Source of the DNA: Porodaedalea pini
Lineage: Eukaryota; Basidiomycota; Agaricomycetes; Hymenochaetales; Hymenochaetaceae
Direction of reading: 5' to 3'
Assembly: GCA_002794775.1 (NCBI GenBank)
Contig: NBAY01000015.1
Span: 434,001 to 498,000, forward strand
Length of the DNA stretch: 64,000 nucleotides
The notes below the pieces were generated by a model. That model ran no database searches, was not told where the DNA came from, and saw only the letters and a program-made list of their open reading frames with translations. The translations under genes and the position numbers were made by a program. Positions 8,711 to 9,082 of the stretch are shown here, piece by piece (position 1 is the stretch's first letter; each line of letters starts with the position of its first letter).

Positions 8711-9082
8711 ATGAAGCTTGCTGCGATCATCATTACTTTCTGCTTCGTCCTTCAGTCAGCAGCAACACCGTTAAGCTTCGTAAGCTTCTACACGTGCTCC
8801 AGCGGTGCTTTGCTCACTTATTTGATTTCCTAGTGCGATACTTTATCTGTGCGGGGCCATAAACGAGACGCAGAACCACTCTCTGACACGTTCAAGCGCG
8901 ACGCCGAGCCCCTCTCAGACACGTTTCGGCGAGACGCCGAACCCCTGTCAGACACTTTCAAACGTGATGCCGAGCCTCTTTCGGATACCTTCAAGCGCGA
9001 TGCCGAGCCGTTATCGGACACTTTTAGGCGCGACGCTGCGCCTGACGCAAACGACACGATCCCGCTTGCGGACACGCCTTAG
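8711..9082 (+). CDS. Secreted precursor with five Kex2-type repeat peptides
   Basis: Two exons (8711-8779 and 8834-9082; 54-bp GT-AG intron) encode 105 aa. Residues 1-19 form a signal peptide (MKLAAIIITFCFVLQSAAT). A short leader with one Cys follows, ending in KR at 33-34. Five perfect copies of DAEPLSDTF follow at 35-43, 46-54, 57-65, 68-76 and 79-87, each closed by KR or RR. The tail is DAAPDANDTIPLADTP. Dibasic KR/RR is the cleavage site of the Golgi protease Kex2. The DA and EP pairs after each site are X-Ala/X-Pro dipeptides of the kind Ste13-type aminopeptidases remove in yeast alpha-factor; if so, the product would be LSDTF. All nine repeat codons vary only synonymously between copies. 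Function unknown: it could be a signalling peptide or the precursor of a modified (RiPP) peptide. No UstY- or methyltransferase-like partner was recognised nearby. Confidence 0.88.
8867..9031 (+). repeat. Five tandem 33-bp coding repeats
   Basis: Each unit encodes DAEPLSDTF plus KR or RR. The units are diverged in DNA, mostly at third positions, but identical in the nine-residue peptide. Confidence 0.95.

What the first reader, a model, noticed from the sequence alone, without database searches (positions are those of the whole stretch)
8711..9082. Undescribed secreted Kex2-type repeat peptide (DAEPLSDTF x5) in a basidiomycete
Seen: a signal peptide, then five identical nine-residue units each bounded by KR or RR, and a related tail. 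All nine codons of the unit differ synonymously among copies with no amino-acid change, so selection on the peptide, rather than recent duplication, keeps the copies identical. Known: Kex2 cuts after KR/RR in fungal pheromones, repellent peptides and dikaritin-type RiPP precursors; Ste13-type enzymes remove X-Ala and X-Pro pairs. Each unit begins DA-EP, exactly such pairs, and the tail begins DA-AP-DA. Inference: the mature product could be LSDTF. I do not recognise the repeat from any named family.
Basis: partly seen in the sequence, partly recalled or inferred. Interest (0 to 1): 0.9.

Follow-up and report, generated by a model that had tools for sequence, protein, structure and literature searches.

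The report
Conserved fungal multi-copy peptide precursor
A fungus carries a small, probably secreted protein that looks built to be cut into five copies of one short peptide, and the same peptide unit is found in related wood-decay fungi; it belongs to a known class of fungal peptide precursors whose jobs are mostly unknown.

Summary
Window 8711-9082 encodes a 105-residue protein (one predicted 54-base intron) with a hydrophobic leader, five identical DAEPLSDTF units between KR/RR sites, and a related tail. All nine codon columns vary between copies, at least 15 changes, all silent, so selection holds the peptide. The exact unit occurs two to three times in proteins of Fomitiporia mediterranea, Pyrrhoderma noxium and two Sanghuangporus species, while leader, outer units and tail diverge. 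In the two species that could be compared, it lies on a contig of the same length as the one with Cwc15, a gene 7 kb upstream here.

The genome has two kexins and a DPP-IV/Ste13-like gene; no UstYa match lies on this contig, against a cyclised dikaritin. Best reading: precursor of a linear secreted peptide, LSDTF if fully trimmed. Against full trimming: 6 of 24 units across species have a blocked first pair, and Glu3, which trimming would discard, never varies. No paper with this sequence was found; supplements were not searchable.

The parts
8711..8779 (+). exon 1: leader MKLAAIIITFCFVLQSAATPLSF
   Evidence: spliced frame; hydrophobic 13-residue peak 2.52 at residue 3; N-terminal peaks at residues 3, 8 and 6 in P0001, P0002, P0004 and at residue 59, just after the internal Met 54, in P0003. 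No signal-peptide predictor was run.
8780..8833 (+). predicted 54-base phase-0 intron GTAAGC...TTTCCTAG
   Evidence: needed to keep the frame from ATG 8711; not shown by RNA
8834..9082 (+). exon 2: CDTLSVRGHKR linker, five units, tail, stop
   Evidence: open frame 8834-9082
8867..8899 (+). unit 1 DAEPLSDTF-KR
8900..8932 (+). unit 2 DAEPLSDTF-RR
8933..8965 (+). unit 3 DAEPLSDTF-KR
8966..8998 (+). unit 4 DAEPLSDTF-KR
8999..9031 (+). unit 5 DAEPLSDTF-RR
9032..9082 (+). tail DAAPDANDTIPLADTP and stop; three XA/XP pairs (DA-AP-DA) at its start
514..1367 (-). Cwc15/Cwf15 spliceosome gene (two overlapping exon ORFs), used as a linkage marker
   Evidence: PF04889 E 2e-38 and 6e-13; the homologues in F. 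mediterranea and P. noxium lie on contigs of the same lengths as their KEP genes

Best explanation
This is a KEX2-processed repeat protein (KEP) with an STE13 signature, found so far in a few Hymenochaetaceae. The leader sends the chain into the secretory pathway (inferred). Kexin cuts after KR/RR, a Kex1-type carboxypeptidase removes the C-terminal basic residues, and a Ste13/DPP-IV-type peptidase removes DA and then EP, releasing up to five copies of linear LSDTF per chain plus one tail peptide (inferred from known enzyme specificities; enzyme genes of these families are present, the cutting was not shown). The secreted peptide most likely acts as a signal between hyphae of the same or related species (inference; my split: about 0.9 KEP precursor, 0.6 complete trimming to LSDTF in at least some copies, 0.4 self-signalling).
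For: Architecture and silent-only variation. 14 of 24 units in five proteins are exactly DAEPLSDTF (5 of 5 here, 9 of 19 in the four homologues), and Leu5 and Glu3 are invariant. 4 proteins at E <= 1 among 4988 candidates, from Fomitiporia, Pyrrhoderma and Sanghuangporus (that all three are Hymenochaetaceae is recalled); a profile search at E <= 10 added none. Contig lengths shared with Cwc15 in the two species whose contigs can be compared. Two kexin loci with P domain and catalytic-domain pieces, one DPPIV_N gene whose exon matches DPP4 structures best, and 29 exon-level S10 carboxypeptidase matches. Precedent: Pleurotus peptides whose precursors carry XA/XP pairs were detected by mass spectrometry, and Pichia removed such pairs from a Coprinopsis KEP (PMC9769878).
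Against: No transcript or peptide data. 8 of 24 units, all in homologues, lack one or both XA/XP pairs, 6 of them at the first pair. Glu3 would be thrown away by Ste13 yet is 24 of 24. Some sites in homologues are not dibasic: KER between the first two units in both Sanghuangporus proteins, and no basic site after the last unit of P0002 and P0004. Five other Hymenochaetales with a Cwc15 protein in the same database (S. baumii, Phellopilus nigrolimitatus, Coniferiporia weirii, Schizopora paradoxa, Rickenella mellea; order recalled) gave no homologue of their own name: absent, unannotated, or for S. baumii perhaps inside the 3-member cluster P0003. Knockouts of six C. cinerea KEP genes had no phenotype. 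No cognate receptor is known; no STE2-type receptor was matched, though that search had no positive control.
Confidence: 0.75

Rival explanations
1. The mature product keeps part or all of the spacer (DAEPLSDTF or EPLSDTF), and the XA/XP look is only a remnant or a kexin-friendly acidic P1' region.
For: Glu3 24 of 24 and Asp1 21 of 24, and 6 of 24 units have a first pair that Ste13 should not remove.
Against: 16 of 24 units keep both pairs, and the tails here and in P0001 also begin with such pairs although the rest of the tails differ. An acidic X in the pairs is also what alpha-factor spacers have (recalled).
Confidence: 0.3
2. A dikaritin-type RiPP precursor whose core is cyclised by UstYa proteins encoded elsewhere in the genome.
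For: Same leader/repeat/dibasic plan; the genome has 11 exon-level UstYa matches.
Against: None of the 11 matches is on contig C15 of 699 kb. The protein has no Tyr after the leader; a passage of PMC7329392 contrasts Tyr content between KEPs with and without neighbouring UstYa/DUF3328 genes, though some such types lack Tyr.
Confidence: 0.05
3. Not a signal between hyphae but a peptide acting on other organisms: competitors, bacteria, or the host plant.
For: Vogt et al. favour interaction with the biotic environment because six knockouts had no axenic phenotype.
Against: The short acidic core is unlike membrane-active peptides (inference); the unit is identical in three further genera, whereas interaction peptides often diversify (inference). 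Their synthetic KEP peptides had no antibacterial activity on five strains (other sequences than this one).
Confidence: 0.3
4. A secreted repeat protein or peptide set that stays in the cell wall rather than acting as a free signal, cut or uncut.
For: Cutting was not shown; Rep1 of Ustilago is a KEX2-processed precursor whose peptides stay attached to hyphae (PMC6339444 section 15).
Against: Dibasic sites separate the exact units in all five proteins, with K/R swaps here that preserve the site; Rep1 lacks the STE13 signature.
Confidence: 0.07

Closest known systems
STE13-signature KEPs of Basidiomycota (Le Marquer et al. 2019, PMC6339444; Umemura 2020, PMC7329392)
   Same: leader, at least three repeats between dibasic sites, XA/XP pairs after the sites
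   Different: no match to this core in the parts of the main texts seen (find). One published example is from F. mediterranea (model Fomme1|148261), whose sequence I could not see; its model name points to scaffold 9 (recalled naming rule) while P0001 lies on a 9.6-Mb contig, so it is probably another gene, not tested
Pleurotus KEPs 1091723 / 1439342, giving (M/L)SGVAADW and SGVAADW (Vogt et al. 2022, PMC9769878)
   Same: Agaricomycete, STE13-type pairs, short core with an acidic residue near an aromatic C-terminus, detected as linear peptides
   Different: core sequence; no Pleurotus protein among the hits
Ascomycete alpha-type pheromone precursors
   Same: leader, repeats, KR plus XA/XP spacer, Kex2/Kex1/Ste13 route
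   Different: core unrelated; STE3-type receptors matched, STE2-type not (no positive control for STE2); basidiomycete mating uses a-type pheromones only (PMC6339444)
Dikaritin precursors (ustiloxin, phomopsin)
   Same: leader, repeats, dibasic sites
   Different: no UstYa match on the contig, no Tyr in the unit
Ustilago maydis Rep1
   Same: KEX2-processed repeats in a basidiomycete
   Different: Rep1 lacks the STE13 signature (PMC6339444 section 15)

Membership tests
KEP (KEX2-processed repeat protein) | N-terminal signal peptide | tested here: inconclusive
   hydrophobic N-terminal peak in the window protein and in the homologues; no predictor was available
KEP (KEX2-processed repeat protein) | at least 3 tandem repeats of at least 8 residues between KR/KK/RK/RR sites (Umemura's rule) | tested here: met
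   five 9-residue units, each followed by KR or RR
KEP (KEX2-processed repeat protein) | actual cutting by kexin | not testable with these tools
   two kexin loci are present in the genome
STE13-signature (alpha-pheromone-like) KEP | XA or XP pairs directly after the dibasic site | tested here: met
   5 of 5 units DA-EP and tail DA-AP-DA here; over five proteins 16 of 24 units have both pairs, 2 the first only, 6 a blocked first pair
STE13-signature (alpha-pheromone-like) KEP | Ste13/DPP-IV-type enzyme in the genome | tested here: met
   one DPPIV_N gene on C47, its exon matches DPP4 chains at E 3e-27; that it is the Ste13 orthologue rather than another DPP was not tested
ascomycete alpha-pheromone | sequence of a known alpha-pheromone type and an STE2 receptor | tested here: inconclusive
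   no alpha-pheromone protein among the hits; the STE2 search gave no match, but nothing rang in its control genomes
dikaritin RiPP | UstYa genes next to the precursor gene | tested here: not met
   11 exon-level matches in the genome, 0 on contig C15

The most novel reading that the evidence does not exclude
DAEPLSDTF is the precursor unit of a peptide hormone of Hymenochaetaceae: LSDTF, made by an alpha-factor-like route in a phylum that does not use alpha-factors for mating, and sensed by a receptor not yet known.
Probability: 0.3. Interest if true: 0.75.

Novelty: new member of a known kind. Interest (0 to 1): 0.42.

Why it matters
Functions of basidiomycete KEPs are largely unknown (PMC9769878 abstract), and most KEP types are found in a single genus (PMC7329392). 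A unit kept letter for letter in three genera besides this genome, found once in this genome, and on contigs shared with the same marker gene in the two species that could be checked, is a clean candidate for a conserved signalling peptide; LSDTF is short enough to synthesise and test directly. If it is a hormone, it would make the question of what alpha-factor-like precursors do in basidiomycetes directly testable.

Tried and rejected
Rejected: recent tandem duplication (silent differences saturated in 9 of 10 unit pairs); a reading on the minus strand (8830-9078 minus is also open, but 60 of 64 changes fall on third positions of the plus frame); a dikaritin cluster; paralogues in the same genome (the only further hit, C2:2465666, E 0.07 and 28% identity, shows no dibasic-bounded repeat to the eye in its translation, and was dropped). 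Rfam (gathering threshold) and ARAGORN scans of the window found nothing. Pfam scans covered 30 window ORFs, my choice of the 108 of at least 100 residues listed (recounted), and named only Cwc15 (2 ORFs), an AAA/CDC48-like piece (3 ORFs, with weaker related AAA models), a P-type ATPase/HAD piece and a RhoGEF; 78 ORFs were not scanned. Species: 53.27 Mb in 201 contigs is close to Porodaedalea pini (53.3 Mb, 220 scaffolds, table row seen) and also near P. laricis in size (53.3 Mb, 951 scaffolds, same table); the name was not tested. Literature searches. Papers seen: PMC6339444 (abstract, Results, section 15, a find), PMC7329392 (abstract, sections 6 and 13, passages), PMC9769878 (abstract, parts 1 and 2 of 3 of the Results, Discussion with Conclusion, passages), PMC12611241 and PMC10410303 (passages); the rest only as search listings. 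Supplements were not available.

Full report
Observation. The window carries at 8711-9082 a small gene on the plus strand. Its first frame runs from ATG 8711 into a TAG at 8831-8833; a GTAAGC...TTTCCTAG intron of 54 bases (8780-8833, phase 0) opens it to the TAG at 9080-9082. The product has 105 residues: a hydrophobic leader, a linker ending in HKR, five 11-residue blocks DAEPLSDTF-KR/RR, and the tail DAAPDANDTIPLADTP. The five blocks differ at 64 places in ten pairwise comparisons of the 27-base core, none of which changes a residue; every one of the nine codon columns varies. With about 23% of single changes silent, at least 15 changes all silent has a chance of about 4e-10, and synonymous differences are saturated in 9 of 10 pairs, with dS 1.29 in the tenth (a simulation gave 0 of 200,000). 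The pairwise method (Nei-Gojobori) charged one replacement step to three comparisons, because the path between TTA and CTC or CTT passes through another residue; no unit has a changed residue. Old duplication with selection on the peptide is the plain reading; recent copying is not.

Relatives. In a database of about 5.8 billion proteins, four match at E <= 1 among 4988 candidates: Fomitiporia mediterranea FOMMEDRAFT_131165, Pyrrhoderma noxium PNOK_0013200, Sanghuangporus sanghuang ACEPAF_5352 and S. weigelae ACEPAI_8240. A profile of all five found no more at E <= 10. Limits: only the 7988 candidates sharing most words were scored there, only proteins of 0.55-1.75 times the length are seen, and short genes are often unannotated. 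Against wide conservation: five other Hymenochaetales (order recalled) whose Cwc15 proteins are in the same database (S. baumii, Phellopilus nigrolimitatus, Coniferiporia weirii, Schizopora paradoxa, Rickenella mellea) gave no homologue under their own name; for S. baumii it may be hidden in the 3-member cluster P0003. The homologues hold 3, 2, 2 and 2 exact copies of DAEPLSDTF. I counted 24 units in the five proteins, chosen by eye from the alignment, tails left out: 14 exact; Glu3 24, Leu5 24, Ser6 23, Asp1 21, Thr8 19, Phe9 19, and Ala2, Pro4 and Asp7 18 of 24. Both STE13 pairs are present in 16, only the first in 2, and the first is blocked in 6. The exact units lie side by side; in Fomitiporia and Sanghuangporus the degenerate units lie at both ends of the array, in Pyrrhoderma at the C-terminal end. 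Not every site in the homologues is dibasic: both Sanghuangporus proteins have KER between the first two units, and P0002 and P0004 have no basic site after the last unit. The first 53 residues of P0003 precede a Met from which it aligns with the others; probably a wrong gene start (inference).

Linkage. The Cwc15 gene lies at 514-1367, about 7 kb upstream, with a transposon-like element and other ORFs between. In a search with its main exon, 120 of 672 hits were listed; the F. mediterranea hit lies on a contig of 9,598,269 bases and the P. noxium hit on one of 4,533,208 bases, the same lengths as for their KEP proteins. For the Sanghuangporus species no comparison was possible. This supports one ancestral locus but is not proof of adjacency.

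Processing enzymes. The genome has two kexin loci: P-domain matches on C6 and C8, and at both loci pieces of a subtilisin-type catalytic domain and a hydrophobic stretch followed by a tail (motifs judged by eye). It has one DPPIV_N gene on C47 (two exon matches), whose main exon matches DPP4 structures, and 29 exon-level Peptidase_S10 matches, the family of Kex1 (which of them is Kex1 was not tested). UstYa gives 11 exon-level matches, none on contig C15. The 7 STE3-type matches are all on C1; STE2 gave no match, but nothing rang in its controls.

Mechanism. Kexin cuts after KR/RR, a Kex1-type enzyme trims the basic ends, and a Ste13-type enzyme removes DA and EP. Applied in silico this gives LSDTF from all five units here and from all nine exact units in the four relatives, and NDTIPLADTP from the tail; P0002's LADTF unit would be trimmed further, to DTF. 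What is shown: sequence plan, selection, conservation, presence of enzyme genes of the right families. What is inferred: secretion, cutting, trimming, signalling. The invariance of Glu3 is the main point against LSDTF being the only selected part; an acidic residue there may serve kexin or Ste13, or the longer peptide may be the active one.

Known or new. The class is known: Le Marquer et al. named KEPs and showed basidiomycete members with STE13 signatures. Umemura counted 7878 KEPs in 1345 of 1461 strains and lists a widespread type (G-1/P-2, 49 genera) that includes Fomitiporia, Pyrrhoderma and Sanghuangporus; its profile is described as rich in Tyr, which our unit lacks, so it is probably another gene. 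By Umemura's rule the P. noxium and F. mediterranea proteins could well be in the supplementary table. Vogt et al. detected such peptides in mushrooms. Searches for the unit and for the gene names in 5.39 million papers gave none; supplements were not searched. I therefore file it as a new member of a known kind.

Noticed in passing
window about 4828-7314: A 2.5-kb element with inverted ends (CAGT...ACTG) flanked by TA, 99.4-99.8% identical to three other genomic places with different flanks. It carries an AAA/CDC48-like gene piece with intron-like interruptions. Its 132-residue exon has 14 genomic matches of at least 91%, 6 of them at 100%, this one included and one of the 14 perhaps the parent gene. 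It looks like a TA-inserting (Tc1/mariner-type) non-autonomous element that captured a CDC48 fragment.
   Followed up: partly
L032 (G000:C1:2050715-2051110), near the STE3 matches C1:2048436-2054011: One copy of that element lies between STE3 pheromone-receptor matches, i.e. inside or beside a likely mating-type region.
   Followed up: no
window about 9960-12490, minus strand: What looks like a many-exon gene convergent with the peptide gene; near its start it has Cys pairs (PCAPCQ, CPGGFPCGKC, read by eye across an apparent intron) that recall a zinc-cluster regulator. The one minus-strand ORF scanned there, 11922-12341, had no Pfam match.
   Followed up: no
P0003 residues 1-53: The S. sanghuang database protein probably has a wrong start; it aligns with the other family members from internal Met 54.
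   Followed up: no
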